In this document: one piece after another, positions 35,995 to 58,250 of the stretch
How the letters are laid out: each line of letters begins with the position of its first letter
Numbering within the stretch: position 1 is the stretch's first letter
From: Peristeroidobacter soli
Lineage (GTDB): Bacteria > Pseudomonadota > Gammaproteobacteria > Steroidobacterales > Steroidobacteraceae
Direction of reading: 5' to 3'
Assembly (NCBI RefSeq): GCF_004138485.1
Contig: NZ_RYEV01000004.1
Location: 432,803 to 496,802 of the forward strand
Length of the DNA: 64,000 bases
Position numbers and translations under genes: made by a program
The notes under the pieces: model-generated
Seen by the model: the letters and a program-made list of their open reading frames with translations, nothing else
What the model was told of the DNA's origin: nothing
The model's database searches: none

Positions 35995-36570
35995 TTACGC
36001 CGCCAGCACGCCTTTCGCTTTCGCGGTGTGAGTCGCGATCAGATCCATCAACGTCGGCGACAGGCAGTCGTACGGAGTCAGGCCCAGCTCGTTCAGACGC
36101 GAGCGCACCGCGCTCATGCCGTCCGGCTTGTAACCCGACTCGATGATGGAGGACACGAACGCCGCGAATTCCGGCGCCGCCCAGCCCTGATCGCTGGACA
36201 GCTCGGTGTGTACGAAGTCGAAGCCATAGAACGGATGGTTCTTGTTTTCGATGCGACCGTACATGTGCACGCCGCAGCCGGTGCAGGCATGACGTTGAAT
36301 CGCCGCCGACGTGTCGACGACCTTCAGCTTCTGTTCGTTGGCCGTGACTTTGAGCTTGTCGCGGGGAATGACCGCGACCATGGAGAAGGTCGCGCCTTCC
36401 GGCTTCCAGCACTTGGTGCAGCCGCAGACGTGATTGAAGGCAACGTCGCCCGCCAGCTGCACCGTCACCTGATTGTCCTTGCACTTGCAAACCAGCGTGC
36501 CCCCCGCGAAGCCCGATTTGCCGGCTTTAACGCCGCCATCCACGGACGGATGAATTTTCAAAGCGCTCAT
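35995..36570 (-). CDS. gfa: S-(hydroxymethyl)glutathione synthase (glutathione-dependent formaldehyde-activating enzyme)
   Basis: 191 residues with the Gfa zinc ligands: [25 protein letters not shown] and [12 protein letters not shown]. Gfa promotes condensation of formaldehyde with glutathione to give S-hydroxymethylglutathione, the substrate of the dehydrogenase encoded 32 bp upstream. It is last in the xoxFGJ operon, which supports formaldehyde as the product being handled. Confidence 0.95.
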
Positions 36571-36602
36571 GTGGATACCCTCAGTCGTTGTTGATCGAAT
36601 CC

Positions 36603-37712
36603 TCAGAAGATCGCGACGCTACGAATCGACTCGCCCTTGTGCATCAGATCGAACGCCTCGTTGATGCGCTCGATCGGCATCTGGTGCGTGATCAGCTCGT
36701 CGATCTTGATCTTGCCCTCCATGTACCAGTCGACGATCTTCGGCACGTCGGTGCGGCCCCGCGCGCCACCGAACGCCGTGCCTTTCCACACACGGCCCGT
36801 CACCAGCTGGAACGGACGCGTGCGGATCTCCTGCCCGGCCCCCGCCACGCCGATGATCACCGACACGCCCCAGCCGCGATGACAGCACTCCAGCGCCTGA
36901 CGCATCAGATCGACATTGCCGACGCACTCGAAGCTGTAATCGGCGCCGCCATCGGTGACATTCACCAGATGTGCCACCAGGTCGCCGCCGACCTCTTTCG
37001 GATTCACAAAATGCGTCATGCCGAACTCCTCGGCGAGCTTCACGCGGCCGGGATTGATGTCGACGCCGACGATCTTGTTGGCGCCGGCGAGCCGGGCGCC
37101 TTGAATCACATTCAAGCCGATGCCGCCCAGGCCGAACACGACCACGTTGGCGCCCACCTCGACTTTGGCGGTGTTGATCACGGCACCGATGCCGGTCGTG
37201 ACACCGCAGCCGATGTAACAAACCTTGTCGAACGGCGCGTCCTCGCGGATCTTCGCCAGCGCGATCTCGGGCAGCACCGTGAAGTTCGCGAACGTGGAGC
37301 AACCCATGTAGTGATGGATCATCTCCTTACCGACCGAGAAACGGCTGGTGCCGTCGGGCATCACCCCTTTGCCCTGCGTGGCGCGAATCGCCGTGCACAG
37401 ATTGGTCTTGCGCGACAGACACGATTTGCACTGACGGCATTCGGGCGTGTACAGCGGAATGACGTGATCGCCCTTCTTCAGCGTCGTCACGCCCGGCCCG
37501 ACATCGACCACGACGCCGGCGCCCTCGTGACCGAAAATCACCGGGAACAACCCTTCAGGATCCGCGCCCGAGCGCGTGAACTCGTCGGTGTGACAGATGC
37601 CGGTGGCCTTGATCTCCACCAGCACCTCGCCGGCACGGGGCCCGTCGAGATCCACGGTGGTGACTTCGAGCGGCTTGCCTGCGGCATACGCGATTGCGGC
37701 TTTGACTTTCAT
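36603..37712 (-). CDS. frmA: S-(hydroxymethyl)glutathione dehydrogenase / class III alcohol dehydrogenase
   Basis: 369 residues of the zinc-dependent medium-chain family. Catalytic zinc ligands appear in [11 protein letters not shown] and [15 protein letters not shown], and structural zinc cysteines in [34 protein letters not shown] binds NAD. It oxidises S-hydroxymethylglutathione to S-formylglutathione. The ATG at 37712 opens the conserved [17 protein letters not shown]; more than 100 upstream codons are open but lie over xoxJ and are shadow sequence. No S-formylglutathione hydrolase is in the window. Confidence 0.96.
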
Positions 37713-37731
37713 ACTCACTCCACGGATGGAT

Positions 37732-38631
37732 TCACTTGACCTTGCCGCTGGCATCCAGCAGTGGCACGCGATAGCTCGCCAGGATCTCGTCGATCCTGGC
37801 CTGGTGCGTGTCGATCCAGTTGTCGAGCACGCCCTGCCATTGTTTTTCGCCAAAGCGCACGCCCATGGCGATTTCGTAATCGAAACGGATCTGCGGGTCC
37901 GGTAGAAAAGGCACGGCGCGCCACTCGGCCTGTTGCGACGACGCCGTGTGTCGCTGTACCAGATACGCAGCCATCGGCCCCCACAGGATGGCGACGTCGA
38001 TTTTTCCGTCGCCCAGGTCCCGTTCGATGATGTTTGCGGGATTCTCGTGCACATCGCCGCTCTGCGGCGCGTAGGCGACCGCTTGCTCGATCAACCCATG
38101 ACGTAGCAGCCAGTCCGAGCCGGGCGAGCGACTGAAGACGCCGAAACGCAACGCCTTCAGCTTCTCCGGCGGCAGCTTCAACAGATCGTCCGCCGTCTGC
38201 ACGCTGCCCTGTTTCGCCAGATCGGGGAACAGCAGCGCATACGTCGAGCGCATGTAGGGCCGCGTCGTGGCGGTGAGCTCGTAACCCTTCGGCACGCCGA
38301 TGATCACATCGCATTTGAATTGTTGAGTGGCCTCGTCGCGCTGACGCAGCGTGTTGCGAACGAAGCCCATGCGCTGGGGAAAGAAAGTGTATTCGACACG
38401 ACGGCCCAGATCGCTCGCCAACGCTTCGGCGATCTTGTTCTCATAGCCCTCGCCGCGCTGATTGGACAACGGCAGGTTGTCCGGATCGGCGCAGACCCGC
38501 AGCACGGAGTCGGGCTGACCGGTCGCCGCCGCACCCGTTGCGACGAGCGACAGCAGGAGACAGACCAGCCCGGTCGTGCCCGTGAGCCTGCTATTCCATC
38601 GGATACAGGTGACCAGGCTGGATCTTGCCAT
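37732..38631 (-). CDS. xoxJ: XoxJ/MoxJ-like periplasmic binding protein (quinoprotein dehydrogenase-associated)
   Basis: 299 residues with a signal peptide (LVCLLLSLVATGAAA) and the bacterial solute-binding fold (VLRVCADPDNLPLSNQRGEGYENKI at the mature start). It matches the quinoprotein dehydrogenase-associated substrate-binding-protein family that includes XoxJ. XoxJ is thought to aid activation or assembly of XoxF, not nutrient uptake. The start overlaps the end of xoxG by 41 bp, and an AAGG box lies 9 nt upstream. No ABC permease is present, which fits a non-transport role. Confidence 0.88.
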   Translation of the reverse strand: MARSSLVTCIRWNSRLTGTTGLVCLLLSLVATGAAATGQPDSVLRVCADPDNLPLSNQRGEGYENKIAEALASDLGRRVEYTFFPQRMGFVRNTLRQRDEATQQFKCDVIIGVPKGYELTATTRPYMRSTYALLFPDLAKQGSVQTADDLLKLPPEKLKALRFGVFSRSPGSDWLLRHGLIEQAVAYAPQSGDVHENPANIIERDLGDGKIDVAILWGPMAAYLVQRHTASSQQAEWRAVPFLPDPQIRFDYEIAMGVRFGEKQWQGVLDNWIDTHQARIDEILASYRVPLLDASGKVK

Positions 38632-39010
38632 CGGAGCGACCTTTCAAGTACGCGTACAGGCCTTCCCAGTTCTTGTTGACCATGGCGCTGCCGCTAAAGG
38701 GCGGCATGCCTTTCTCGGGTCGGCCGTTCATGATGGTGGTGTGGAAGTCTTCCTTGCTGAGCTTCTTCAACGACTCCACCAGCGCCGGCCCGACCAGTCC
38801 TTCCTGTTGAGCGCCGTGGCAGCGCTCGCAAGCGAGCGCGCGCCACGTCTTCCAGCCGTCCAGTGTTTTCGCATCGACTTTGTTGCCATCTTTCACCTGG
38901 TAGGGAGCACCCGCCGCGGGTGCGTCGTTGGCACTCGTGCACACCGCGGCGATGCTCAAAGCCAGGAACCCGATCGACCACGTCGCGACCCTCACTTTCG
39001 ATGAGCTCAT
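38591..39010 (-). CDS. xoxG: c-type cytochrome, XoxG-like electron acceptor of XoxF
   Basis: 139 residues with a signal peptide (WSIGFLALSIAAVCTS). There is a single haem-binding CxxCH in ALACERCHGAQQEGLVGP and a likely axial Met in GRPEKGMPPFSG. Class I cytochromes in this position accept electrons from XoxF and pass them to the respiratory chain. It starts 11 bp after the xoxF stop, within a 15-bp duplication. The frame is open upstream into xoxF, but the leader begins at ATG 39010. Confidence 0.92.
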   Translation of the reverse strand: MSSSKVRVATWSIGFLALSIAAVCTSANDAPAAGAPYQVKDGNKVDAKTLDGWKTWRALACERCHGAQQEGLVGPALVESLKKLSKEDFHTTIMNGRPEKGMPPFSGSAMVNKNWEGLYAYLKGRSDGKIQPGHLYPME

Positions 39011-39024
39011 TTTCAATGAGCTCA
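38996..39024. repeat. 15-bp tandem duplication at the xoxF stop / xoxG start
   Basis: Two copies of TTTC[G/A]ATGAGCTCA, at 38996-39009 and 39011-39024, 15 bp apart. One copy contains the xoxF stop and the other the ATG of xoxG, so the duplication sets the spacing and coupling between the two genes. Confidence 0.8.
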
Positions 39025-40953: not shown

Positions 40954-41346
40954 ATGACGATGCAACGCCTGTGCCAGCAAACCACTCTCGGGCTGATGTC
41001 GTGCGCTTTAGTGATATTCAGCCTGCCGGCCAGCGGCGACGAGGACGCGCCGGTGTACAACTACCCCACGCAGGCGCGCGTCGAATATGTGAACGAATGC
41101 ATCGCCAGGCACGAGGACAGCCTGGCGAACATGTATCAATGTTCCTGCGCCATCGATCGCATCGCCAACGTTCTGAACTACGACGAGTTCGTCAATGCGA
41201 TCACCTTCGCGCGCTACTCCGGCTTGCCCGGCGAAGGGGGCGGCATCTTCCGGGATTCGGATCAGGCCCGCGCCACGGCCAAACGTTTCCGCGAGCTGGA
41301 AACCCAGGCCCAGCGCGAATGCGGGCTGCTCAAATCCAAATCCTGA
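40954..41346 (+). CDS. Small secreted four-cysteine protein of unknown function, divergent from xoxF
   Basis: 130 residues (an alternative ATG at 40960 is possible). The leader SCALVIFSLPASG ends near residue 28. The mature part is short and helical, with Cys49, Cys63, Cys65 and Cys123 and the stretches EYVNECIARHEDSLANMYQC, CAIDRIANVLNYDEFV and ARYSGLPGEGGGIFRDSDQA (each part of the conserved-looking core). I do not recognise a characterised family. It is transcribed away from xoxF over a 105-bp shared promoter and ends 5 bp from the convergent YVTN gene. It may be a periplasmic partner of XoxF; no motif identifies a metal or haem site (no CxxCH). Confidence 0.8.
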   Translation: MTMQRLCQQTTLGLMSCALVIFSLPASGDEDAPVYNYPTQARVEYVNECIARHEDSLANMYQCSCAIDRIANVLNYDEFVNAITFARYSGLPGEGGGIFRDSDQARATAKRFRELETQAQRECGLLKSKS

Positions 41347-41351
41347 ACGGA

Positions 41352-42413
41352 TCAGGGCGGCGCCGGTCCGAGCACGATGCCCCAAGGCGATTTGCCGACG
41401 GGAATTCGTTTTACTTCCGTGAGCGCTCTCGTATCCACGACGCTCACGTCGTTCGATGGCCCATTTGCGGTATACAAATGATGTCCGTCGGCGGCGAGCG
41501 CCATCCCCCAGGGCCGCTTACCGACCGGAATCTCCTTGATCAGCTTCGGCGCCGCTTTCATATCCACGACCGCCACCGTTCCGCCGCGCCCGGTACTCAA
41601 ATACAAGCGGTTGCGTGGTGAATCCAGGATGACGGCCATTGGCCGTGCGTCTTCGCGCAGCTGTAACAGGCGTTGCACTGGAGCGTCACCCGTGACAGAC
41701 ATCCGGTACAGCGATGCATCCATCTCGCCAGAAACATAGGCGGTGCTGCCATCGGGCGTGAATGCCATGTCGCGCGGCCGCTTGCCGACTGGAACTGTTT
41801 TCGTTCCCTTGAGTGTCGTCGTATCGATGACAGAAACCGAGTTGTCCGACTCGTTGGTGACCAGCACCCGGCGTCCATTCGGTGTCAGCGCCACACCCTC
41901 GGGCTCCAGTCCCACCTCGATGCGCTCGATGACCTTGCCGGCGTCCGCATCGACGACCGAGAGCGTCCCGGTGTCCTCGTTGGCGACGTACAGACGTTTG
42001 CCATCGTTGCTCATAGCGAACTGTTCGGGATCGGACCCGGCCGCCAGCACTTTGATGACCTTGCGCGCCGAGGTGTCGACGACGGCAATGCCGTCGGCCT
42101 GCAGATCGCGCTCGAGCCTGGCGCACTCCTCGTCGGGCACGGTGGGCGGACATTTCGGCAAGCCGCTCACCGCGACGAACAATCGCGAACCGTCGCGAGA
42201 TAATTTCAAGCCGCGCGGCCGCTTACCCACATCGATCGTTGCGATAGTGGTCGCGCTTTGCGTATCCAGTACCGATACCGATGCACCGTCTTCGTTGGAA
42301 ACATAGGCGCGGGCGCTGGCAGCCTGAGTGGAGGCTGCGGCAACTTCGAATATGTATCCGCAGACACCGCACGCGATCATCACCAGCAGTGGCCGCCAAG
42401 CGACAGGTGGCAT
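41352..42413 (-). CDS. YVTN-type beta-propeller protein (PQQ-dependent catabolism-associated)
   Basis: 353 residues with an N-terminal signal (WRPLLVMIACGVCGYIFEVAAA) and seven or so YVTN repeats, for example SRDGSRLFVAVSG, SNDGKRLYVANEDTGTLSVV, TPNGRRVLVTNESDNSVSVI and AADGHHLYTANGPSNDVSVV. It resembles beta-propeller proteins recurrently found beside PQQ-dependent dehydrogenases; these do not bind PQQ themselves as far as I know. GAGGA lies 6 nt before ATG 42413, preferred over ATG 42434 and the longer open frame. It is divergent from the sigma54 activator. Confidence 0.87.
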   Translation of the reverse strand: MPPVAWRPLLVMIACGVCGYIFEVAAASTQAASARAYVSNEDGASVSVLDTQSATTIATIDVGKRPRGLKLSRDGSRLFVAVSGLPKCPPTVPDEECARLERDLQADGIAVVDTSARKVIKVLAAGSDPEQFAMSNDGKRLYVANEDTGTLSVVDADAGKVIERIEVGLEPEGVALTPNGRRVLVTNESDNSVSVIDTTTLKGTKTVPVGKRPRDMAFTPDGSTAYVSGEMDASLYRMSVTGDAPVQRLLQLREDARPMAVILDSPRNRLYLSTGRGGTVAVVDMKAAPKLIKEIPVGKRPWGMALAADGHHLYTANGPSNDVSVVDTRALTEVKRIPVGKSPWGIVLGPAPP

Positions 42414-42547
42414 GCGATGTCCTCGTTGAGTCATTAACACCGGTTTAGCATGCCGTATGCCAGCGGGTTCCATCTTGGTTAAACTTCGTCTCGCTGGCTG
42501 CGACGACACTGCATTGGATGCGGTGAGATAAATCAATCCGCGGGCTG

Positions 42548-42601
42548 AGTGTGTCAGGGGCGATACAGACCGTGACACTGTCACGGGACAGTTGACACAC
42601 T
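42548..42601. promoter_or_regulatory. Nested inverted repeats between the YVTN gene and the sigma54 activator gene
   Basis: A perfect palindrome CCGTGACA-C-TGTCACGG occupies 42570-42586. Around it, AGTGTGTCA (42548-42556) is the exact reverse complement of TGACACACT (42593-42601). The repeated TGACAC half-sites look like an operator or enhancer for the neighbouring activator. Confidence 0.6.
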
Positions 42602-42630: not shown

Positions 42631-44616
<1,986 letters not shown>

Positions 44617-44650
44617 ACCAACAATACCAGGGACGGCAAGGAGTCCGGGG

Positions 44651-47269: not shown

Positions 47270-48421
47270 ATGCTGCAGCTGGCCAGAGGCGGCGGCGCCC
47301 TTTGCTTGGTGTTGCTGTGTTCTTGCACTAGCAAGGCGCCCCCCGCGCCGCCACCGCCCGAAGTGCGGGTGGTCACCGCGAAAGCGCAATCCATCGAAAA
47401 CATCACCGAAGTTCCTGGCCGCGTGCAGGCCGTTCGCACCGCGCAGGTGCGCGCCCGCGTGGACGGCATCGTCGAGCGCCGGCTTTATGAGGAAGGCACC
47501 GACGTCAAAGCGAATCAGACGTTGTTCGTAATCGACCCTCGTGAGTATCGATCCAACGTGAGCGCCGTCGGCGCCACGCTGACGCGCGCTCAGGCCACCG
47601 CGGCTAATGCTCGACAGGATGTCGAGCGTTACAAAGGCCTGGTCAAGGAACAAGCGATCAGTCAGCAGGAATTCGACGCGGCGATGGCACGCTTGCGCAC
47701 CGCTGAAGCGGACGTGGCGCAAACGCAAGCACAACTCGAAAGCGCGAAGCTCAACCTGAGCTACACGACCGTGAGCGCGCCGATCGCCGGTCGCGCCGGA
47801 CGCGCTCAGGTCACCGAAGGCGCTCTGGTCAGCGCCTCCTCGGCGACCCTGCTCACCACCATCGAACAGCTCGAACCGATCTATGTGAATTTCTCGCAGT
47901 CGAGCGCTTATCTGCTGGCCATAAGACGTGAAATCTCAGCCGGCACGCTCAAGGTGCCCGAGTTGGGCAAAGTCGCGGTCACGCTGAAGCTCGAGGACGG
48001 CAGCACTTATCCGCATGCCGGTCATCTGAACTTTCTGGATCTGTCCATCGATCAGGCGACCGGCACCGCGGCGGTCCGCGCAGAGTTTCCGAATCCGGAG
48101 CAGATATTGCTGCCAGGGCAGTTCGTGCGCGCACGCATCGAGGCCGGCATCCGGCCGCATGGATTTGCGATTCCTCAGCGTGCCATTCAACTGAGCTCGT
48201 CGGGAGCCGCGGTATTGACCATCGCCGAGGGCGACACGATCGCGCCCCGGCCCGTGAAGCTCGGCGATCAGCGCGGCGATCAATGGATCGTGCTGGACGG
48301 GCTCCACGATGGAGATCGTGTGGTCGTGGATGGCATTCAGAAAGTTCAGCCCGGCGCGCACGTTCGCGTGATCGACGCGGACGAGCCCGCTGCAAGCGCC
48401 GCCAAACCCGCGGAGCGCTGA
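47270..48421 (+). CDS. RND efflux periplasmic adaptor lipoprotein (MexA/AcrA-like)
   Basis: 383 residues with a lipoprotein signal (lipobox LLCSC) and a proline-rich linker. The biotinyl-lipoyl and hairpin region includes VPGRVQAVRTAQVRARVDG, QAISQQEFDAAMARLRTAEA and LSYTTVSAPIAGRAGRAQVTE. It bridges the inner-membrane pump and the outer-membrane channel encoded next. The ribosome site is weak (GGAGG is 24 nt away), but an in-frame stop at 47255 leaves no better upstream start. Confidence 0.94.
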   Translation: MLQLARGGGALCLVLLCSCTSKAPPAPPPPEVRVVTAKAQSIENITEVPGRVQAVRTAQVRARVDGIVERRLYEEGTDVKANQTLFVIDPREYRSNVSAVGATLTRAQATAANARQDVERYKGLVKEQAISQQEFDAAMARLRTAEADVAQTQAQLESAKLNLSYTTVSAPIAGRAGRAQVTEGALVSASSATLLTTIEQLEPIYVNFSQSSAYLLAIRREISAGTLKVPELGKVAVTLKLEDGSTYPHAGHLNFLDLSIDQATGTAAVRAEFPNPEQILLPGQFVRARIEAGIRPHGFAIPQRAIQLSSSGAAVLTIAEGDTIAPRPVKLGDQRGDQWIVLDGLHDGDRVVVDGIQKVQPGAHVRVIDADEPAASAAKPAER

Positions 48422-48424
48422 GGC

Positions 48425-51400: not shown

Positions 51401-51577
51401 ATGGTGCCTCTGGTACTGTCGGCCGGCGCGGGCGCGGCCAGTCGTATCGCGGTGGGCACGGGCGTCATGGGCGGCATGATCGCCGCAACCGTGCTGGGCA
51501 TCTTCTTCATCCCGGTGCTTTACCTGTCCGTGCGACGCTGGTTGACGCGCGGAAAGTTGAAGACAGCCCATGAGTAG
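48425..51577 (+). CDS. RND efflux inner-membrane pump, HAE1 family (MexB/AcrB-like)
   Basis: 1050 residues starting with GTG 48425 (MSPRFFIDRPIFSWVIALGI). The essential proton-relay acids are in TM4, GILVDDAIVVIENVERI. Two duplicated halves of six membrane segments each enclose large periplasmic porter loops (ITVTYPGADA at the first, WTGISFEEQQAGGQ at the second). It exports hydrophobic or amphipathic compounds using the proton gradient; the natural cargo cannot be read from the sequence. It follows the adaptor by 3 bp. Confidence 0.96.
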   Translation: MSPRFFIDRPIFSWVIALGILLAGTLALRSLPIEQYPAIAPPSLTIAVTYPGADAATLETNVTQVIEQELNGVEGFLYMASTSRSNGTASITVTFDSGTDIDVAQMDVQNKLRAIEQRLPEEVRRQGILVNEASSSFLMIVALQSKTGATPSLELGNFAATRVIDELRRVPGVGDIRSFSSEYAMRVWLDPDRLTTYSLSAAEVLAAVQEQNTQSPGGQLGDRPLANRTELNAPILTQNRFTTPEQFASIILRANPDGSTVRVGDVGRVELGAQSYLSDMELNGKPAAGMGIQLSTGANALATATGVKERLTQLQHSFPEDITWAVPYDTTPFISISIDEVVKTLVEAMVLVFLVMFLFLQNWRATLIPTIVVPIALAGACLGLWVLGFSINVLTLFGMVLAIGILVDDAIVVIENVERIMTEEGLPPHEATVKAMTQITSAIIGITLVLVAVFVPMAFFPGSTGGIYRQFSLTLTLSIAFSALLALTLTPALCATLLKSEPLHCRADAERSTSRLGRWSARFFGGFNDWFGRVTHRYQALVGGILARSLRFLAIFVLLVGIALLLFSRLPGSFLPAEDQGAIITVVQAPPGATIDRTDEAIDQVRGFYRAQPQTRSIIFIRGFSFFGQGQSNAMAFVSLTPWDERPGEQNNALTLVGKANALLSQVKQALIFTLNPPSIPSLGVAAGFTFKLQDRAGLGQQALVNARNQILMAASRSPVLTAVRPEGQADSPQLRVLIDRVKARALGLSIADVNATLAIAFGSAYANDFSREGRILRVLLQADAPYRMTPADVLALRVRNTQGEMVPFGAFTTTEWTAGPPQTDRYNGYPAMTLSGSPAPGRSSGEAMNEMARLAGQLPEGFDFEWTGISFEEQQAGGQVGALLGLSLIVVFLLLAALYESWTVPLAVLLVVPLGVLGAVLFTMLRGLPADVYFNVGLIAIIGLAAKNAILIVEFALEEEAAGKSTFDATMNAVKLRLRPIIMTSLAFILGMVPLVLSAGAGAASRIAVGTGVMGGMIAATVLGIFFIPVLYLSVRRWLTRGKLKTAHE

Positions 51578-53003
51578 GCTCTCCAACGCACTGCGCGCCC
51601 TCAGCATCGGAATGTTTCTTTCCGCGTGCTCGTTCGCACCTCGCGACGAGCGCCCTGCGCTACCGACTGCGCAGCGATATGCGGAAGGCTACGTCGACGG
51701 TCCCGCAGCCGGCACACGAGCCGTCGAATTCGGATGGCGAGATTTCTTTGCCGACCCACGGCTGGAAGTCTTGATCGCGACGGCGCTGAAAAACAATCGC
51801 GACCTGACGATCGCGGTCGCGCAGATCGAAGAAGCGCGCGGCCTGTATCGCGTCCAACGATCCGATCTGCTACCGAAGATCAACGTCAACGCAGAAGTCA
51901 CGCGCAACGGCGTCGGTCCGGAGAGCGCCGGGCTCACGGGGGCGACACCGCTGGGCACCAGCGAGACGTTCACCCAGTACTTCGTGGGCGCGGGTGTCGC
52001 CGCCTTCGAGCTGGATTTCTGGGGTCGCGTTCGCAATCTATCTCGGGCCGCGCGCGCCGAGTATCTCGCGACCGTCGAGGCGGCCCGGGCGTTTCAACTT
52101 TCGCTGATTCGGGACGTCGCCTCCGCATATTTCGCAGCGCTCGAAGCCCGCGAGCGCCTGGAATTGGCGGAAGCCACCGTCGACAGTCGTCGCGAAGGCC
52201 TGCGTATCGCAAAGAAGCGCCTGGATGCCGGTGTCACGTCCGCTCTGGATTTCCGCCAGGCTGAAACGCTGCTGACGCAGGCAGAAACCGAGCTTGCATC
52301 ATTACGCTTCACCAAGGCACAGAACGAGAACCTGCTCGCGACCCTCGTCGGCAGCGCCATCGCCGAACCGCTGCCCGAGCCATTGCCGCTCGCGGACCAG
52401 GACCGAATGGAAACATTGGCCGCGGGGATGCCATCGGATTTGTTGGTAAACCGACCCGACATTCTGGCCGCTGAGCATCGGCTGCGTGGCGCTCGCGCGA
52501 ACATCGGCGCGGCGCGCGCGGCATTCTTTCCTTCGATCACCCTGACCGGCAGCTACGGCTTCGCGTCGACGGAGCTGGACTCGCTGGTCGGCAACGATCG
52601 ACGCACCTGGTCCTACGGGCCGTCGATCTCGCTGCCGATCTTCGACTTTGGCGCCCGCCGCGCCAACCTGACCGTCGCCGAGGCGCGCCAGAACATCGCG
52701 ATCGCCGACTACGAGCGCACCATTCAAACCAGCTTTCAGGAAGTCTCGGACGCGCTCGCCGGTCGCAAGTTTCTTGCCGAGCAAGTGAGTGCCCAGGAGC
52801 GGGGAACGAAGGCACAACGACAACTCGCGGAGCTCGCGCATCGCCGTTATAACGAAGGCGTCGTCAGCTACCTCGAGGTGCTGGATGCGGAGCGCAATCT
52901 GTTCTCAGCGGAGCAGGCACTGCTGCAGGTCCGTCGCGCCGAGGTGTCCAATCTCGTGTCTCTGTATATCGCGCTGGGTGGCGGACAGATCGAGACGCGC
53001 TAG
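51570..53003 (+). CDS. RND outer-membrane factor lipoprotein (OprM/NodT-like)
   Basis: 477 residues with a lipobox (LSAC) near residue 19. Two TolC-like repeats contain the periplasmic helices, for example NNRDLTIAVAQIEEARGLYRV and LVNRPDILAAEHRLRGARAN, the latter an OprM-family hallmark. It overlaps the pump gene by 8 bp. Its stop and that of the convergent pqqE share a CTAG at 53000-53003. Confidence 0.94.
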   Translation: MSRLSNALRALSIGMFLSACSFAPRDERPALPTAQRYAEGYVDGPAAGTRAVEFGWRDFFADPRLEVLIATALKNNRDLTIAVAQIEEARGLYRVQRSDLLPKINVNAEVTRNGVGPESAGLTGATPLGTSETFTQYFVGAGVAAFELDFWGRVRNLSRAARAEYLATVEAARAFQLSLIRDVASAYFAALEARERLELAEATVDSRREGLRIAKKRLDAGVTSALDFRQAETLLTQAETELASLRFTKAQNENLLATLVGSAIAEPLPEPLPLADQDRMETLAAGMPSDLLVNRPDILAAEHRLRGARANIGAARAAFFPSITLTGSYGFASTELDSLVGNDRRTWSYGPSISLPIFDFGARRANLTVAEARQNIAIADYERTIQTSFQEVSDALAGRKFLAEQVSAQERGTKAQRQLAELAHRRYNEGVVSYLEVLDAERNLFSAEQALLQVRRAEVSNLVSLYIALGGGQIETR

Positions 53004-54127
53004 GCGAGACGACTGGAATTCTCGCGACGCCTGAAGATCAACGGCGCCTCGGGCACCTGCGGCTGCTGCGCCCGGTCGAGCGCCGCCAGGACCACCTGAT
53101 GATGCGGACTCTTGGAGCACACCGGATCCGCCACCGCCGGGTCATGGGCCAGCAAATACGCCTGACACCGACACCCGCCCAGATCCTTCTCCCGCTCCTC
53201 ACAACTCGCGCACGGCTCTTTCATCCAGCCAAAGCCGCGAAACTTGTTGAACGCCTCGGACTGAAACCAGATCTCCCGCATGCCCTTCGTGCGAACATTC
53301 GGAAAGCTCAACCCCGGCAGCATCCTCGCCGTGTGACACGGCAGCGCCGTCCCGTCCGGCGCGATGGTCGCAAGCGTCGTGCCCCAGCCATTCACACATC
53401 GCTTCGGGCGCTGCTCGTAGTAATCCGGCACCACGAACAGAATCCGCATCTTGCCTTTCATCCGCTCGCGCCACTCGAGCATCGTCCGCTCGGCTCTCTG
53501 CAACTGCTCTCGCGACGGCAGCAGGTGCTCCCGATTCAGATGGGCCCACGAGTAATACTGCGTGTTCGCCAGCTCCAGATAGTCCGCGCCCATTTGCACC
53601 GCCATGTCGATGATGGTGTCGAGATGATCGATGTTGAGCCGATGGATCACGCAGTTGACCACCATCGGATAGCCGTGCGACTTGATCCACTCCGCGCAGC
53701 GCTTCTTCAGCTCGAACGTTCTGGTGTGCGACAGGAAATCATTCATCTCCCGGGTCGAGTCCTGAAACGACAGCTGGATGTGATCCAGCCCCACCCGTTT
53801 CAACTCACTCAAGCGCTCGCGCGACAAACCGACGCCCGATGTAATCAGATTCGTGTAGTACCCCAACCGATGCGCCTCGGCCGCGATCTGCTCGACGTCA
53901 TCCCGCACCAACGGCTCGCCACCCGACAATCCCAATTGCACCGACCCGAGCGCCCGCGCCTCGCGCAGCACTCGCAGCCATTCCCCGGTCGTCAACTCAT
54001 CCTCGACCTTGGCGAAGTCGATCGGGTTGTAACAGAACACACATTGCAACGGACATCGATACGTCAGCTCGAGCAGCAGCCACAAGGGCGGCCCGACAGA
54101 CGGCGATGTTGTCACTGCCGCTTTCAT
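53000..54127 (-). CDS. pqqE: PqqE, radical SAM peptide cyclase of PQQ synthesis
   Basis: 375 residues. The radical-SAM cluster motif C-x3-C-x2-C is Cys25, Cys29, Cys32 in LTYRCPLQCVFCYNP. The SPASM domain near the C-terminus has CVNGWGTTLATIAPDG and CASCEEREKDLGGCRCQAYL. PqqE cross-links Glu and Tyr of PqqA as the first step of PQQ formation, working with PqqD. It starts in an ATGA overlap with pqqD. Confidence 0.97.
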   Translation of the reverse strand: MKAAVTTSPSVGPPLWLLLELTYRCPLQCVFCYNPIDFAKVEDELTTGEWLRVLREARALGSVQLGLSGGEPLVRDDVEQIAAEAHRLGYYTNLITSGVGLSRERLSELKRVGLDHIQLSFQDSTREMNDFLSHTRTFELKKRCAEWIKSHGYPMVVNCVIHRLNIDHLDTIIDMAVQMGADYLELANTQYYSWAHLNREHLLPSREQLQRAERTMLEWRERMKGKMRILFVVPDYYEQRPKRCVNGWGTTLATIAPDGTALPCHTARMLPGLSFPNVRTKGMREIWFQSEAFNKFRGFGWMKEPCASCEEREKDLGGCRCQAYLLAHDPAVADPVCSKSPHHQVVLAALDRAQQPQVPEAPLIFRRRENSSRLA

Positions 54128-54396
54128 GACACCGCCGCACTGAGCCAGCCTTGCGCTCTGGCCAGCTGCAGGAATTGTTCGATGTCGCCTTGCAGCCCCT
54201 TGCGATTGAACGCCGACTCCAGGTCCGCCACGATCTCATCGACACTGCGCTCGCCATCGCACCGACGCAGAATCTCCGCGGCACTGGTGTTCAACTTCAC
54301 CATGCCCTCCGGATACAGCAGCACATATGCCTTCTGCACTTCCTCCCACTGCAGCCGGAAGCCAGGGCGCATGCTCGGCCGGTCGGCCTGGGTCAT
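54124..54396 (-). CDS. pqqD: PqqD, PqqA-binding chaperone
   Basis: 90 residues: an N-terminal region, then [19 protein letters not shown] and [20 protein letters not shown], the PqqD winged-helix core. It binds PqqA and presents it to PqqE. The ATG at 54396 overlaps the pqqC stop as ATGA and the end overlaps pqqE the same way. A longer open frame upstream lies over pqqC and is shadow. Confidence 0.96.
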
Positions 54397-55094
54397 GACT
54401 GAACTCCGTAATGCTGTGCCATGGCGTCGTTCATCGCCCACAGGATGTCGAGCTTGAACTTCAGCACCTGCAACGCCCGCTGCTGTTGCTCGCGAGTCTT
54501 GAAACAGGCGAGCGTCACGGCCAGCCCGTGATTCACGTCGCGTTGGGCGAGCGAAACGCGGCTGCGAAAGTACTGCAGTCCGTCCTGCTCGATCCACGGA
54601 TAGTGCTCCGGCCACGACGACAACCGTTGGCGATGAATGGCGGGCGCAAACAACTCCGTCAGCGATGAGCACACCGCTTCCTGCCACGGCGCCTGTCGGG
54701 CGAAATTCACATAGGCGTCGACCGCGAAACGCACGCCGGGAATCAACCACTGCAATTCCTCCACCTCGGCGCGTTCCAAACCGACCGCTTCGGCCAATCG
54801 CAGCCAGGCCTCGATGCCGCCGGGATCGTCGCCATGGCCGTCGTGATCCAGGATGCGTTCGACCCAGCGCCGTCGCACCTCCCGATCCGGGCAGTTCGCC
54901 AGAATCGCCGCGTCCTTGCGCGGGATGCTGATCTGATAATAGAAGCGATTCGCCACCCAGCCCTGGATCTGTTGGCGGCTCGCCTTGCCGGTATTCAGCA
55001 TCACGTTGAACGGATGATGGATGTGATACGCCTGCCCCTGCTCCCGCAAGTGCAGCTCGAACTCCGCCTCATTCCAGGGAACGTCGCCGCTCAC
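54393..55094 (-). CDS. pqqC: PqqC, pyrroloquinoline-quinone synthase
   Basis: 233 residues with GTG start inside a GTGA overlap with the pqqB stop. Core blocks [37 protein letters not shown] and [19 protein letters not shown] match PqqC, the cofactor-free oxidase that closes and oxidises the PQQ ring in the last step. Confidence 0.97.
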
Positions 55095-55996
55095 AGCACG
55101 ATCTCCATACCGTCGTACGCAACCTCGATGCGGCGTTCGCTCAACAGCGCGCGCTCGGGCGAGTCCTCGACCAGGATCGGGTTGGTATTGTTGATGTGAA
55201 TCAGCACGCGCCGCGTGGTCGCCGGCAGCCGGTCGAGCCAGGTGATCATGCCGCCGGTCTGCGATAGATGCCCCATGTCGGCCGCGCGCTTGTGAGATAC
55301 GCCGAGCCGCACGAGCTCGTCATCGGTCCAGAACGTGCCATCGACCAGCACGCACTGAGCACTGCTCATCAACTCGAACAACCACGAATCGATGTTGGCG
55401 ACGCCGGGCGCGTAGCACAGCCGCGCCTCGGTTCTCACATCCTCGACGATCAGTCCGATGACATCGCCCAGCGCCGGGGCACGCGTGGAATACGGCGGCG
55501 GCCGGCCGGGCAACGCGATCGCCTGCCAGCGCAGATCGTCGCTGCCTTCGACCGTGAACCACTCGCCCGTCACGATGCGCTGCCGGTCGATGCCACAGTA
55601 CCGCTGCAGGACCTGCAGAATGGGGTTCGAGATCGTGAGATCGGCGAAGGCATTGTCCGTACACCACAGCGGCCACGGCCGCGTCGCCTCGCGTAGCATC
55701 AACAGGCCGGTGGTGTGATCGATCTGCGAGTCGGTCAGGACGATATTGCGGATACCGGTGTCGCGATAAGCCCGGCCCGGCTGCAGTTGAGGATTGGCCT
55801 GCAGTTGCGCCAGGATGTCGGGCGACGCGTTGACCAGCGTCCAGGCGGTTTCATCCGCGCCGCGGATCGCGATGGACGACTGGGTGCGCGGGCGGGCGTC
55901 AAGCTCCTCCCGTCGCACGCCGCCGCAGTTGGGGCAGTTGCAATTCCACTGAGGAAAGCCACCGCCAGCGGCAGCGCCTAGAATTCGTATGTGCAT
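55091..55996 (-). CDS. pqqB: PqqB, metallo-beta-lactamase-fold enzyme of PQQ synthesis
   Basis: 301 residues starting [19 protein letters not shown]. Further family marks are NCNCPNC, the degenerate histidine region [16 protein letters not shown] and [18 protein letters not shown]. PqqB hydroxylates an intermediate in the pathway. The ATG at 55996 is preferred because it opens the conserved sequence. It follows pqqA by 52 nt, with a hairpin in that gap. Confidence 0.97.
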
Positions 55997-56007
55997 GGGC
56001 AAGGCGA

Positions 56008-56031
56008 GGCTCCGGGACACTCCCGGCAGCC
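56008..56031 (-). promoter_or_regulatory. Stem-loop between pqqA and pqqB
   Basis: On the minus strand CCGGGA-GTG-TCCCGG forms a 6-bp stem, extended by GGCT/AGCC pairs, just after the pqqA stop. Such a hairpin could protect or attenuate transcripts so that the PqqA peptide is made in excess over the enzymes. There is no U-tract, so it is not a strong terminator. Confidence 0.6.
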
Positions 56032-56048
56032 CCGCCCTCTTTCAACGA

Positions 56049-56123
56049 TCAACGGTGCTCGGCATACATGGTGATTTCCATGCCCAGACGCAGATCGATG
56101 GCCACAGGGGTTTCCCAAGTCAT
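56049..56123 (-). CDS. pqqA: PqqA, precursor peptide of PQQ
   Basis: A 24-residue peptide beginning MTWETPVAIDLRLG. Glu16 and Tyr20, in EITMYAEHR, are the two residues that PqqE joins to make the PQQ skeleton, at their canonical positions. AAGGAG lies 6 nt before the ATG at 56123. It is first in the pqqABCDE order. Confidence 0.97.
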   Translation of the reverse strand: MTWETPVAIDLRLGMEITMYAEHR

Positions 56124-56197
56124 GGTGGACTCCTTGTAGGGACCAACCGCGGTCCCGACACCACCATGACGCCATCCCACCGCCCCGGCTACTCGAC

Positions 56198-56229
56198 AAT
56201 CATGATTCGCGACTCATGATTTTCATGAG
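56198..56229. promoter_or_regulatory. Palindromes in the pqqA / sensor kinase divergent promoter
   Basis: AATCATGATT (56198-56207) is a perfect palindrome, and CTCATGA-TTT-TCATGAG (56213-56229) is a perfect 7-3-7 inverted repeat. Both contain TCATGA cores. They lie between the divergent starts at 56123 and 56278. The response regulator at 57621 is a natural candidate binder. Confidence 0.55.
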
Positions 56230-56277
56230 CGCGGCCTGCCTCATACTTCGCGCCCCGCCGCCGGCAAGGAAGGACCG

Positions 56278-57624
56278 TTGAAACTTCGCACCCACGTCAA
56301 CCTGATCGTCGCCAGCCTGAGCGCGGCCTTCGTGATCCTGGCGGCGTGGCTGCAATTCGACGGCACCCGGCGTGCAGTGCGCGAGGAGATCGCCGGGGCC
56401 AACGTCGTGGCCACCCAGCTGCTGAGCCGGATTCTGATCGGTTACGACCAGCGCGACGATGAGCAGCTGCTGACCTTCCTGCAGCACCTCGGCCGGGTGC
56501 GCGCCCACGAGATCACGGTGCGCGATGCAAACCGGCAGATCATCTATGAATCCCCGCCTTCGCCCTACAAGGCCGGCCGCGAAGCACCCGCCTGGTATGC
56601 ATCCTTCATTCTGCCCACGACCCCGGTGCACATCTTTCCGCTCGCGAACGGCTCGGAGGTGCGGATCGAAGCGAATGCCTCGCGCGCCATTCTCGATGGC
56701 TGGGACGATTTCAAACATCTGATGATGGTCGGTGGCATTGCGTTCGCGATACTCAACGCCGCGGTGTTCTGGCTGGTCGGTCGCGCGGTGGCGCCCTGGC
56801 CCATCATCGTCGAGGGGCTCACTCGCATCGAGCAAGGCGATCTGCGCCACCGCCTGCCGAAACTGAAAGGTTACGAAGCCAACATGATCGGCTCGACCTT
56901 CAACCGCATGGCAGTGTCGCTCGAAGAGAAATTGCTCAGCGATCGCAAAGCCGTCGAAGCCGAACAGCGTCTGCAGCAGCGCCGTGAGCTCGACCAGCTC
57001 ATCGAGCAGCGACTGGATGAGGAACGACGCGTCATCGCGCGCGAGCTGCACGATGAGTTCGCGCAATCGGTGACCGCGATTCGCAGCTTCGCGGTCGTGA
57101 TCGCGAACCAACACCCGGTCGACTCGCAGACGGCCGAAGTGGCTCGGCTCATTTCAAGCGAAGCGGCCCAGCTTTACGACGCCATGCACGGGTTGATTCC
57201 CCGCCTCGCGCCCCTGACGCTCGATACCCTGGGACTGGCGGAAACACTGGAGGGCTTCATCAAGCAATGGCAAGGCCGTCATCCCGCGATCCGCTTCTCG
57301 CTGCATCACGAGTTGCCCACCGAGCTCGGGACCAGCGCCACCATCGCGGTGTATCGTGTCGTTCAGGAAGCGGTGATCAATGCCGTGCGCCATGCGCGTC
57401 CCACGCAGGTCGAGGTCAGTGTCGTGCATTCCGACTCGCACATTCGAGTACGCGTCACCGACAACGGCATCGGCCTGCCCGAGGACTGGTCGCGGCCGGG
57501 ACATTTCGGACTGCGCGGCTTGCAGGAGCGCATGGCGATGTTGGGGGGCACACTTACTTTGAAGAACCGCGAGCCGGGCGGCGTGGCGCTGACGGCCGAG
57601 ATTCCGCTGGGAGAGCACGCATGA
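56278..57624 (+). CDS. Two-component sensor histidine kinase, NarX/UhpB type
   Basis: 448 residues from TTG 56278, with an AAGGA-rich box just upstream. One membrane helix at about residues 7-26, a periplasmic sensor loop to about 147, and a second helix (VGGIAFAILNAAVFWLV) precede HAMP. The HisKA_3 phospho-acceptor is His258 in RVIARELHDEFAQSV, followed by an HATPase domain with DNGIGLPEDW and HFGLRGLQERM. It overlaps the response regulator by ATGA. Adjacent to pqqA, it may sense alcohol, metal or quinone status. Confidence 0.93.
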   Translation: MKLRTHVNLIVASLSAAFVILAAWLQFDGTRRAVREEIAGANVVATQLLSRILIGYDQRDDEQLLTFLQHLGRVRAHEITVRDANRQIIYESPPSPYKAGREAPAWYASFILPTTPVHIFPLANGSEVRIEANASRAILDGWDDFKHLMMVGGIAFAILNAAVFWLVGRAVAPWPIIVEGLTRIEQGDLRHRLPKLKGYEANMIGSTFNRMAVSLEEKLLSDRKAVEAEQRLQQRRELDQLIEQRLDEERRVIARELHDEFAQSVTAIRSFAVVIANQHPVDSQTAEVARLISSEAAQLYDAMHGLIPRLAPLTLDTLGLAETLEGFIKQWQGRHPAIRFSLHHELPTELGTSATIAVYRVVQEAVINAVRHARPTQVEVSVVHSDSHIRVRVTDNGIGLPEDWSRPGHFGLRGLQERMAMLGGTLTLKNREPGGVALTAEIPLGEHA

Positions 57625-58250
57625 TCAGAGTGCTGCTCGTCGACGATCACACGGTGGTGCGCACCGGCTTTCGGCTGCTGCTGGAAACCGTGAGCGACGT
57701 GCGCGTAATTGCCGAAGCCGACAGCGGTGAAACGGCCTGCGTGCGTTTCGATGAAGATAAACCCGACGTGGTTGTGCTCGATCTTTCCATGCCCGGCATG
57801 GGCGGCCTGGAAACCCTGCGCCGCCTGCGAGCTCGCGACAAGGAGGTGAAAACCCTGGCCCTGTCCGCGCACGACGACGCCATCCATGCCCGGCGTGCAC
57901 TGAAACAAGGCGCCTTGGGCTTCCTTTCCAAACGCACCGCCCCGGAAACATTGCTCGAAGCGGTGCGGATGGTCGCGGCCGGTCAACGTTACATCGATCC
58001 CAAGCTCGCCCAGGAGATCGCCCTGGCCGAGGTCGGCGGCGCGACGCTGGTCGATGCCCTGTCTGAACGGGAGTTCGAAGTGTTCCTGCGCCTGGCCAAC
58101 GGCGCCGCCGTGCCGAAAATCGCCGCCGAGCTGAACCTGTCCACTTCCACGGTCGGCACCCATCTCTATAACATCAAACAAAAGCTGCACGCCGGCAATC
58201 AGGCCGAGCTGACCCTGATCGCGCTGCGCGCCGGGCTGATCGAGCGCTGA
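57621..58250 (+). CDS. NarL/LuxR-family response regulator (AgmR/ErbR-like by context)
   Basis: 209 residues. The receiver domain has acidic residues in LLVDDHTVVRTGF, phospho-acceptor Asp54 in VVLDLSMPGMGG, and Lys104 in LSKRT. The output domain is a LuxR-type HTH (LSEREFEVFLRLANGAAVPK and LNLSTSTVGTHLYNIKQKL). Its partner kinase overlaps it by ATGA. Regulators of this class beside pqq genes control PQQ and quinoprotein alcohol dehydrogenase expression in pseudomonads; a similar role is inferred here. Confidence 0.93.
   Translation: MIRVLLVDDHTVVRTGFRLLLETVSDVRVIAEADSGETACVRFDEDKPDVVVLDLSMPGMGGLETLRRLRARDKEVKTLALSAHDDAIHARRALKQGALGFLSKRTAPETLLEAVRMVAAGQRYIDPKLAQEIALAEVGGATLVDALSEREFEVFLRLANGAAVPKIAAELNLSTSTVGTHLYNIKQKLHAGNQAELTLIALRAGLIER

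What the first reader, a model, noticed from the sequence alone, without database searches (positions are those of the whole stretch)
35995..58250. Coherent lanthanide-type alcohol oxidation island: xoxFGJ with formaldehyde handling, pqqABCDE and regulators
Seen: one operon places xoxF, xoxG and xoxJ before frmA and gfa, so methanol to S-formylglutathione is encoded in order. XoxF has Asp321-x-Asp323. About 12 kb away is a complete pqqABCDE operon with a divergent two-component system, and between them are a sigma54 activator, a TonB receptor, a YVTN protein and an RND pump. Known: XoxF needs a lanthanide and PQQ. Inferred: the region is one functional unit. No S-formylglutathione hydrolase or formate dehydrogenase is present, so completion of the pathway must be elsewhere.
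Basis: partly seen in the sequence, partly recalled or inferred. Interest (0 to 1): 0.75.

Follow-up and report, generated by a model that had tools for sequence, protein, structure and literature searches.

The report
Lanthanide methanol-oxidation island with hidden partner
A soil bacterium's gene island for burning methanol with a rare-earth enzyme is real, and it hides a small, probably secreted protein that travels with this enzyme across Proteobacteria and is probably the counterpart of an unexplained gene needed for lanthanide-dependent methanol growth in a model methylotroph.

Summary
In detail: xoxF-xoxG-xoxJ-frmA-gfa, a YVTN gene, a sigma54 activator, a TonB receptor, an RND pump, pqqABCDE and a two-component system lie where stated; XoxF carries Asp321-x-Asp323. 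fghA and a formate dehydrogenase lie elsewhere in the genome; no second xoxF or mxaF was found. Synteny in four close relatives supports one unit for xox, YVTN, activator, pqq and two-component system, not for the RND pump (present in 2 of 4). pqq is the genome's only copy and probably serves other quinoproteins.

Two things were missed. (1) A 130-aa four-cysteine protein, 40954-41346 (+), divergent from xoxF, with no convincing Pfam, NCBIfam or PDB match. It tracks XoxF5-like enzymes: 30 of 30 genomes with XoxF >=60% among 369 of the class and 35 of 35 with XoxF >=57% among 398 of the phylum hold it; the exceptions are mostly contig ends. By gene order it is probably orf6 of Methylorubrum extorquens AM1, whose published deletion cripples methanol growth only with lanthanum. 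(2) A sigma54 promoter before xoxF, inside that gene's first codons, at 9 of 11 loci with the gene. The mechanism (XoxF maturation) is inferred.

The parts
35995..36570 (-). gfa, S-(hydroxymethyl)glutathione synthase
   Evidence: TIGR02820 329.6 bits, cut-off 234.55
36603..37712 (-). frmA, S-(hydroxymethyl)glutathione dehydrogenase
   Evidence: TIGR02818 611.6 bits, cut-off 543.95; start
37732..38631 (-). xoxJ, quinoprotein-associated periplasmic binding protein
   Evidence: TIGR03871 282.8 bits, cut-off 212.15
38591..39010 (-). cytochrome c in the xoxG place (one CxxCH, CERCH)
   Evidence: below the cut-off of TIGR03874
39022..40848 (-). xoxF, lanthanide-type methanol dehydrogenase, Asp321-x-Asp323, Cys123-Cys124
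   Evidence: 69% identical to a protein annotated XoxF5 in Phyllobacterium
40961..40976 (-). sigma54 -24/-12 site TGGCACAGGCGTTGCA upstream of xoxF, inside the first codons of the small gene
   Evidence: only zero-mismatch site in the window; pattern at this place in 9 of 11 loci that have the small gene, own included
40954..41346 (+). small four-cysteine protein (130 aa, signal-peptide-like N-terminus), companion of XoxF5; probable orf6 homologue
   Evidence: AF2 model; gene order
41352..42413 (-). YVTN beta-propeller gene (start placed at the ATG after the sigma54-like site; the longest ORF runs to 42632)
   Evidence: TIGR03866 253 bits, below cut-off 287; alignment A4
42447..42462 (-). degenerate sigma54-like site before YVTN (TGGCATACGGCATGCT; the full pattern in G074 and G129)
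42550..42599 (.). candidate activator-binding sites: TGTGTCA ... GTGACA.TGTCAC ... TGACACA, conserved in the 5 sequences aligned
42631..44616 (+). sigma54 activator, GAF-AAA+-Fis, GAFTGA motif (ATG placed at 42631)
   Evidence: PF00158 218.9 bits; GAFTGA
44582..47143 (+). TonB-dependent receptor
   Evidence: PF00593, PF07715; relatives at other xoxF loci
47270..53003 (+). RND efflux adaptor, pump and outer-membrane channel; accessory
   Evidence: absent at this place in G074 and G129
53000..54127 (-). pqqE
   Evidence: TIGR02109 517 bits, cut-off 381
54124..54396 (-). pqqD
   Evidence: TIGR03859 111 bits, cut-off 46; start
54393..55094 (-). pqqC
   Evidence: TIGR02111 340.5 bits, cut-off 240
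55091..56020 (-). pqqB
   Evidence: TIGR02108 375 bits, cut-off 245
56049..56123 (-). pqqA, 24 aa with E-x-x-x-Y
56278..57624 (+). sensor histidine kinase (HAMP, HisKA_3)
57621..58250 (+). NarL/LuxR-type response regulator

Best explanation
The island is a lanthanide-dependent methanol oxidation system built on XoxF5. XoxF5 oxidises methanol in the periplasm and passes electrons to the XoxG-type cytochrome (inferred from family); formaldehyde is taken through Gfa, FrmA, FghA and formate dehydrogenase (the last two encoded elsewhere; presence shown). The operon is driven by a sigma54 promoter just upstream of xoxF and switched by the GAF-type sigma54 activator encoded next door (promoter and activator shown by sequence, the link between them inferred). 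The small four-cysteine protein encoded divergently from xoxF is a dedicated partner without which XoxF5 does not work well: most likely a periplasmic maturation factor that acts on the apo-enzyme, for instance in forming its adjacent-cysteine disulfide or in loading metal and PQQ (co-occurrence shown; export and identity with AM1 orf6 inferred; biochemical step inferred).
For: Operon and motifs. Pathway completion; RuBisCO present; no fae. Small protein: T39, C49, C63, C65, D68, E94, F99, R100 and C123 invariant in a 73-row alignment. Co-occurrence: 30 of 30 genomes with XoxF >=60% hold it among 369 of the class, where 33 hold it (Fisher 5e-41); at the searches' own limits 31 are shared of 33 and 33. 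35 of 35 with XoxF >=57% among 398 of the phylum. 11 of 11 with XoxF >=80% among 150 of the family, where 12 hold it. These identity limits were set after seeing the lists. Adjacency: 61 of 80 loci have XoxF >=60% in the flank, 47 within 1 kb, in both orientations. It co-occurs also when more than 300 kb away on one contig (G397, G284, G685, G596). Tree of 54 rows: all 38 small-positive XoxFs lie in one clade (98/99), which also holds three small-negative rows of one genome (G856); the sister clade of six DxD rows lacks the protein. Gene order in G768 matches AM1 META1p1740-1750, where orf6 deletion gives 0.03 against 0.16 per h with La (PMC7391723, passages). Neighbours include SoxYZ-like, SoxH-like and CXXCW genes, linked in print to adjacent-cysteine quinoproteins (PMC12997753 section 15). 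Sigma54: TGGCAYN5TTGCW gives 33 hits in the 80 loci against 0-4 for seven other spacings, and ranks first of 720 letter permutations, median 1; 22 of the 33 stand before xoxF-like (13), TonB receptor (4), frmA (3) or YVTN (2) genes.
Against: No biochemical evidence for any maturation step. MxaF-type enzymes do without the protein, and so do lanthanide-type (DxD) MDHs of other branches: G389, five g18 genomes, and G856, where two of three copies show DxD; so a general disulfide role is not enough. A second xoxF copy in G060 (C177) has no small gene beside it. SoxYZ-like, SoxH-like and CXXCW are not in this window. The sigma54 pattern is missing at 2 of 11 loci with the gene (G004, G022) and in 55 of the 80 loci; with one mismatch allowed the window's 5 sites are not above chance (mean 2.5; 13 of 100 shuffles reach 5). 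The inverted repeats lie by the YVTN site, and none of the four heptamers was found close upstream of the xoxF promoter in the window. In the window the YVTN site has a mismatch in the -12 box. 8 of the 13 xoxF-type hits are from the window's own family.
Confidence: 0.6

Rival explanations
1. The small protein is not a maturation factor but a periplasmic adaptor between XoxF5 and its cytochrome, or the messenger by which XoxF controls gene expression.
For: The same co-occurrence data fit. XoxF5 is suggested to take part in the lanthanide switch in M. silvestris (PMC9291206, passages).
Against: SoxYZ-like and SoxH-like genes stand near it at 21 and 23 of 80 loci; Pfam reports no heme or DNA-binding domain in it.
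Confidence: 0.25
2. The small gene only travels with xoxF as part of a transferred cluster and has no role with XoxF.
For: 61 of 80 loci are clustered with xoxF, and transfer of clusters would give co-occurrence.
Against: It co-occurs also where far away on the same contig (G397, G284, G685, G596), in different orders and orientations, in records named Alpha-, Beta- and Gammaproteobacteria, and is absent where only other MDH branches are present. Probable AM1 orf6 has a lanthanum-specific growth defect.
Confidence: 0.07
3. The sigma54-like sequence before xoxF is conserved only because it codes for the first residues (MTMQRLC) of the small protein, and xoxF is controlled otherwise, for instance by the two-component system beside pqq.
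For: The site overlaps codons of the small gene; no inverted repeat was found close upstream of it in the window; G004 and G022 lack it.
Against: Letters of the spacer vary while both boxes stay; the pattern is enriched at the sigma54 spacing; it also stands before xoxF in other groups (L118, L133, L134, L162, L197) and before frmA and TonB receptor genes in Massilia; a GAFTGA activator is encoded beside it.
Confidence: 0.2
4. One reading: everything from gfa to the two-component system, RND pump included, is one functional unit.
For: All genes are there and contiguous.
Against: The RND trio is missing from 2 of 4 close relatives with the rest in place; pqq is the sole copy for a genome with many quinoproteins.
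Confidence: 0.1

Closest known systems
XoxF systems with GSH-linked formaldehyde oxidation and the Calvin cycle in Bradyrhizobium and Sinorhizobium (PMC12628762, abstract start and passages)
   Same: XoxF with GSH-linked formaldehyde genes adjacent; RuBisCO elsewhere in this genome; no fae found here.
   Different: Here a Steroidobacter-like genome, with xoxGJ in one operon, sigma54 activator and promoter, YVTN and TonB receptor beside it and pqq 12 kb away.
orf6 (META1p1746) of Methylorubrum extorquens AM1 (PMC7391723, passages)
   Same: By gene order in G768: between xoxFGJ plus about three genes and orf7-pqqE; needed for methanol growth only with La.
   Different: Published as a gene of unknown function in one organism; sequence identity not tested here; in the window it sits directly divergent from xoxF and holds the xoxF sigma54 site in its first codons.
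Quinoprotein-associated SoxYZ-like, SoxH-like and rhodanese-type proteins (PMC12997753 section 15)
   Same: Genomic company of quinoproteins with adjacent cysteines; often near the small gene.
   Different: Different families; none is in this window.
Sigma54 regulator MmoR beside soluble methane monooxygenase genes (PMC6778391, passages)
   Same: One-carbon oxidation genes beside a sigma54 regulator gene.
   Different: That gene lies beside methane monooxygenase genes; here the site lies before xoxF.
Lanmodulin and lanpepsy, periplasmic lanthanide-binding proteins (PMC11996626, PMC11845868, passages)
   Same: Small periplasmic proteins tied to lanthanide metabolism.
   Different: No EF-hand or PepSY match in any of 73 family members.

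Membership tests
XoxF5 lanthanide methanol dehydrogenase | Lanthanide Asp-x-Asp motif | tested here: met
   W320-D321-Y322-D323-G
XoxF5 lanthanide methanol dehydrogenase | Closest to XoxF, not MxaF or PedE/PedH, among solved structures | tested here: met
   6oc5 920 and 6dam 889 bits against 667 (MxaF 1g72) and 341 (6zcv)
XoxF5 lanthanide methanol dehydrogenase | Clade XoxF5 (as NCBI names it) | tested here: met
   69% identity to a Phyllobacterium protein annotated XoxF5; no reference tree of clades 1-5 was built
XoxF5 lanthanide methanol dehydrogenase | Lanthanide- and PQQ-dependent activity | not testable with these tools
   needs protein
Sigma54-dependent activator (bEBP) | AAA+ domain with GAFTGA loop and Fis-type HTH | tested here: met
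   PF00158, PF02954; GAFTGA at 441 of the longest ORF
Sigma54 promoter | -24 and -12 boxes at fixed spacing | tested here: met
   TGGCACAGGCGTTGCA, zero mismatches; spacing control over 80 loci
Sigma54 promoter | RpoN-dependent start of transcription | not testable with these tools
   needs RNA data
M. extorquens Orf6 | Same place in colinear gene order | tested here: met
   G768 contig, xoxF fragment to pqqB with fused pqqCD frame; that G768 is Methylobacterium-like is inferred
M. extorquens Orf6 | Sequence similarity | not testable with these tools
   no AM1 chromosome record was found by the searches used
Lanmodulin | EF-hand repeats | tested here: not met
   no EF-hand family in 73 members
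Lanpepsy | PepSY domains | tested here: not met
Any named Pfam/NCBIfam family or solved fold (small protein) | profile or fold match | tested here: not met
   window protein: none. Of 73 members, three Pfam models match one member each (best 7e-4) and an NCBIfam glucokinase model matches 4 (best 7e-5), taken as chance. Foldseek best E 2.8

The most novel reading that the evidence does not exclude
The four-cysteine protein is an unnamed family that is an obligate, clade-specific maturation factor of XoxF5 lanthanide methanol dehydrogenases throughout Proteobacteria, with a small helical fold not found in the PDB; it acts with the SoxYZ-like/SoxH-like/CXXCW thiol relay on the apo-enzyme, and XoxF4 and MxaF have dispensed with it. 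In Steroidobacter and Massilia relatives the whole system is under sigma54 and an alcohol- or aldehyde-sensing GAF activator.
Probability: 0.35. Interest if true: 0.8.

Novelty: new variant of a known kind. Interest (0 to 1): 0.62.

Why it matters
How XoxF is assembled in the periplasm with PQQ and a lanthanide is, to my knowledge, open. A protein that accompanies XoxF5-like enzymes in 30 of 30, 35 of 35 and 11 of 11 genomes examined here, is annotated as hypothetical or not at all in the plasmid records listed, and whose probable counterpart has a lanthanum-only growth defect is the sort of missing part that makes the question testable. It also offers a genome marker for XoxF5-based methanol oxidation. 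The sigma54 promoter offers a regulatory route for xoxF that the searches did not turn up, and it would tie lanthanide alcohol oxidation to alcohol- or nitrogen-sensing regulation outside classical methylotrophs.

Tried and rejected
Tried and dropped: (a) a structured RNA in the 500-bp gap before xoxF: Rfam gave nothing, and the conservation is that of codons on the other strand. (b) A RiPP reading of the PqqD-like gene after the activator in distant relatives: only an isolated 90-112-aa PqqD-like gene beside a TonB receptor was seen. (c) A lanthanide-receptor identity for the TonB receptor: below the cut-off of PqqU and of every named model listed; left open. (d) That the small protein follows all quinoprotein methanol dehydrogenases: refuted by genomes with only MxaF-like or other-branch enzymes and no small protein. 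(e) That AM1 orf6 is excluded because G542 and G861 place the small gene elsewhere: those two read as Bradyrhizobium-like (xoxF-cytochrome-frmA-gfa; the name is inferred), so I looked at G768 instead. (f) Fold search by Foldseek: nothing at E <= 0.001.

Rows dropped before counts: 8 of 80 loci were left out of A3, by eye (L078, L107, L139, L141, L142, L146 as near-copies of others; L119 without a clear start; L154 a false match). In one search, 5 of 41 genomes with E between 7e-6 and 7e-4 were not counted. The identity limits of 60, 57 and 80% were set after seeing the lists; three of the 30 class genomes (G346, G312, G267) and G714 have only partial XoxF matches. In some searches only part of the XoxF candidates of each genome were scored (at most 8, 3 and 3), so a missing XoxF is weak evidence there. 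The quick XoxF tree of 94 rows put four small-negative rows (three of G856, and L166) inside the small-positive group; the careful tree used 54 of the 94 (every second small-positive row; L166 and four rows of 37-39% identity left out) and still holds the three G856 rows inside. L020 was first searched on the wrong strand and repeated.

Literature limits: ten searches of the held open-access library. xoxF with sigma54, RpoN or sigma-54 gave 6, 3 and 2 papers, nine different ones; I read passages in four (PMC6778391, PMC5874634 for xoxF only, PMC12403871, PMC12997753) and opened none of the other five, so earlier reports of sigma54 control of xoxF are not excluded. PMC10875860 (passages) reports small ~110-aa hypothetical proteins beside XoxF3 in Acidobacteria; whether they belong to this family was not tested. 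Passages with nothing on the small gene: PMC12482762, PMC12542740, PMC8561711, PMC5784242.

Full report
What is there. The window lies in a 9.37-Mb genome of 17 contigs (C3:432803-496802). Its nearest named relatives at this locus are Steroidobacter agaridevorans and Peristeroidobacter agariperforans. On the minus strand the order is YVTN, xoxF, xoxG, xoxJ, frmA, gfa. On the plus strand follow the sigma54 activator, the TonB receptor and the RND trio. pqqABCDE is on the minus strand at 53000-56123, with a divergent HK/RR pair. XoxF counted from the ATG at 40848 has Asp321-x-Asp323 and the adjacent cysteines 123-124. Its best solved relatives are XoxF structures, and it is 69% identical to a Phyllobacterium protein annotated as XoxF5.

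Rest of the pathway. The genome holds fghA (C11:105086, 426.7 bits, cut-off 281.7) and a formate dehydrogenase alpha subunit (C2:1284141, 929 bits, cut-off 666). It also holds one RuBisCO large subunit and no fae. The methanol/ethanol quinoprotein family gives seven places over its cut-off, the window's XoxF among them. Of the seven next best places read, six carry a CxxCH near the C-terminus in frames of 666-786 aa, as quinohemoproteins do; the seventh frame could not be judged. No second XoxF or MxaF was found: one search scored 8 of 23 candidates with XoxF itself, all 23 with the family model. The design resembles the one reported for Bradyrhizobium and Sinorhizobium (XoxF, GSH pathway, Calvin cycle; PMC12628762, abstract start and passages). 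pqqE occurs once over cut-off, so this pqq set probably serves the other quinoproteins too.

Is it one unit? I read the neighbourhoods of the 11 other loci with XoxF of 82% identity or more that one search found in 150 genomes of the family. In the four closest genomes (G115, G106, G074, G129; XoxF 89-96% identical) xox, YVTN, the activator and pqq stay together. HK/RR is seen in three; in G129 my stretch ended inside pqqB, and the same contig as L079 adds pqqA and part of HK. The RND trio is present in G115 and G106 only. In G074 the activator gene abuts pqqE, and in G129 only the TonB receptor lies between. So the RND pump is an accessory. More distant relatives (G060, G135, G003) keep xox and the activator, but have an isolated PqqD-like gene there instead of pqq.

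The missed gene. YVTN and xoxF are 500 bp apart in the window and its close relatives. An alignment of eight upstream regions showed codon-like conservation on the other strand. Translation gave a protein of 126-144 aa with a signal-peptide-like start at 11 of 12 xoxF loci examined, own included; the second xoxF copy of G060 shows none beside it. In the window it is 40954-41346 (+), 130 aa, divergent from xoxF. The 11 share C49, C63, C65 and C123. A scan of a collection of 84,980 species' genomes returned 80 loci, the most a call gives. 61 of the 80 have XoxF of at least 60% identity in the flank, 47 within 1 kb and 59 within 3.5 kb, with xoxF on either strand relative to the small gene. Of the 19 others, four (L085, L091, L141, L153) begin within 1 kb of a contig end and one (L154) is a false match. 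A 73-row alignment (A3) leaves T39, C49, C63, C65, D68, E94, F99, R100 and C123 invariant. The window protein matches no Pfam or NCBIfam model; among the 73, three Pfam models match one member each and a glucokinase model matches four at 7e-5 or worse, which I take as chance. Profile search of the PDB gives nothing below E 0.5. AlphaFold2 gives a helical core, residues 41-122 mostly above pLDDT 90 (mean of all 83). Foldseek finds nothing in the PDB at E <= 0.001. In the plasmid rows listed (60 of 250) the gene is 'hypothetical protein', unannotated, or in a record without annotation; two of the four regions opened show it as hypothetical beside or near XoxF genes in full annotation, a third beside fae, and in the fourth no feature is listed on it.

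Co-occurrence. In 369 genomes of the class the small protein is in 33 and a XoxF-type match at E <= 1e-150 in 33; 31 are shared. XoxF of at least 60% identity is in 30, and all 30 hold the small protein. The three with the small protein but no such XoxF are G383 (contig ends 0.9 kb past it), G459 (an 8-kb contig of a 78%-complete assembly) and G308 (a 52-residue XoxF fragment at the contig end). Fisher's test gives 5e-41, ignoring relatedness and the limit chosen afterwards. In 398 genomes of the phylum 36 have strong matches to the small protein and 43 a XoxF-type match at 1e-120. XoxF of at least 57% is in 35, all of which hold the small protein. The 36th, G768, has a contig that ends inside a 75%-identical xoxF. 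The other seven of the 43 lack the small protein: six with best identities of 43-51%, and G856. In 150 genomes of the family the small protein is in 12 and XoxF of at least 80% in 11 of them; the twelfth, G096, has an 80%-identical xoxF cut by a contig end beside it. Four genomes of the same genus without XoxF also lack it (G028, G044, G085, G123). Lanthanide-type (DxD) enzymes of other branches occur without it: G389, five g18 genomes, and G856, where two of three copies show the DxD motif. In a careful tree of 54 rows all 38 small-positive XoxFs and the three G856 copies form one clade (98/99), and the other six DxD rows form its sister. G856 may be XoxF4, which PMC11996626 (passages) calls exclusive to Methylophilaceae; that label is my inference. 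In G397, G284, G685 and G596 small gene and xoxF share a contig but lie more than 300 kb apart, so adjacency alone does not explain the pattern.

What it probably is. In G768 the order is xoxF (cut), xoxG, xoxJ, about three genes (two clear ORFs and one frame that I take as a third), small gene, a 236-aa protein with a signal-like start, pqqE, a fused pqqCD frame, pqqB. PMC7391723 (passages) gives for M. extorquens AM1: META1p1740 xoxF1, 1741 xoxG, 1742 xoxJ, 1746 orf6, 1747 orf7, 1748 pqqE, 1749 pqqCD, 1750 pqqB. The small gene thus stands where orf6 stands. There the orf6 deletion grows at 0.03 per h on methanol with La, against 0.16 for wild type and 0.04 for the xoxF1 xoxF2 double mutant, and the authors say the need shows only if La is given. 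If the identity holds, the function 'needed for XoxF' is already shown by genetics, and what is new is the family, its range and its tie to one enzyme clade. The Orf7-like family occurs at 25 of the 80 loci, not in the window.

How it may work. SoxYZ-like and SoxH-like genes were found at 21 and 23 of the 80 loci, and at 11 each of 29 loci of which seven are among the 80. A review ties these and a rhodanese-type protein to quinoproteins with adjacent cysteines and suggests disulfide formation or cofactor stabilisation (PMC12997753, section 15). A protein with four invariant cysteines fits as another member of such a relay, acting on apo-XoxF5. This is inference. Against it, the same review says that Ca-dependent enzymes share the cysteine pair, MxaF-like enzymes occur without the small protein, and none of the relay genes is in this window.

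Regulation. TGGCACAGGCGTTGCA at 40961-40976 (-), about 110 bases before the xoxF start, is the only zero-mismatch sigma54 site in the window; with one mismatch the window has 5 sites, not above chance (mean 2.5, 13 of 100 shuffles reach 5). It lies inside the first codons of the small gene. The pattern TGGCAYN5TTGCW is at that place in 9 of the 11 loci with the small gene, missing in G004 and G022, and also in G096. Over the 80 loci (1.21 Mb) it occurs 33 times in 25 loci, against 0-4 times for seven other spacings, and ranks first among 720 letter permutations with a median of 1. The next permutation has 26, so conserved coding sequence can also repeat. Of the 33, 13 precede xoxF-like genes (8 of these in the window's family, two before 38-39% identical quinoproteins), 4 a TonB receptor, 3 frmA and 2 YVTN; 11 precede none of the queries. 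A sigma54 activator gene was found at 25 of the 80 loci. G856 shows the site before one xoxF with an activator gene (38%) divergent from it. The activator has GAF, AAA+, GAFTGA and Fis parts. Inverted repeats (TGTGTCA, GTGACA.TGTCAC, TGACACA) conserved in the five sequences aligned lie between the activator and YVTN and may be its binding sites; how they would reach the xoxF promoter 1.5 kb away is unclear.

Verdict. With the companion protein and the sigma54 promoter it becomes a new variant worth bench work.

Noticed in passing
58323-59988 (+): A TonB receptor gene is broken: the N-terminal part (plug domain) is open to 59561, and a C-terminal barrel end is readable in another frame from about 59330, with too little barrel between them.
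   Followed up: partly
L047:3551-3745, L048:13065-13337, L050:7075-7413, L200:5318-5548: An isolated PqqD-like gene follows the sigma54 activator in four distant relatives (G060, G135, G003, G096), with no pqq operon seen there; a TonB receptor follows in L048 and L050, and a weak match to one in L047.
   Followed up: partly
L096, L108, L110, L125 (Massilia): TonB receptors 33-34% identical to the window's receptor stand directly behind exact sigma54 sites in xox clusters, which hints that the receptor belongs to the regulon.
   Followed up: partly
G000, contigs C1, C2, C3, C5: The genome encodes seven quinoprotein dehydrogenases over the TIGR03075 cut-off (XoxF included) and more below it, six of the seven others read with a CxxCH near the C-terminus, but only one pqqE over cut-off.
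   Followed up: partly
25 of the loci L076-L155; L183:7124-7834: A second unnamed family (about 230 aa, signal-like start, Orf7-like) sits near the small gene or xoxF; in G593, G768, Salipiger and Sinorhizobium records it stands directly before the small gene; it is not in the window.
   Followed up: partly
L194 (Paraburkholderia largidicola plasmid): The small gene lies right after fae in an H4MPT gene cluster, with folB and then a sigma54-dependent regulator behind it and a PQQ dehydrogenase 8 kb away.
   Followed up: no
L147: The record is titled Klebsiella pneumoniae MAG, but its neighbourhood matches that of a betaproteobacterial MAG (L144) family by family; the label is probably wrong.
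   Followed up: no
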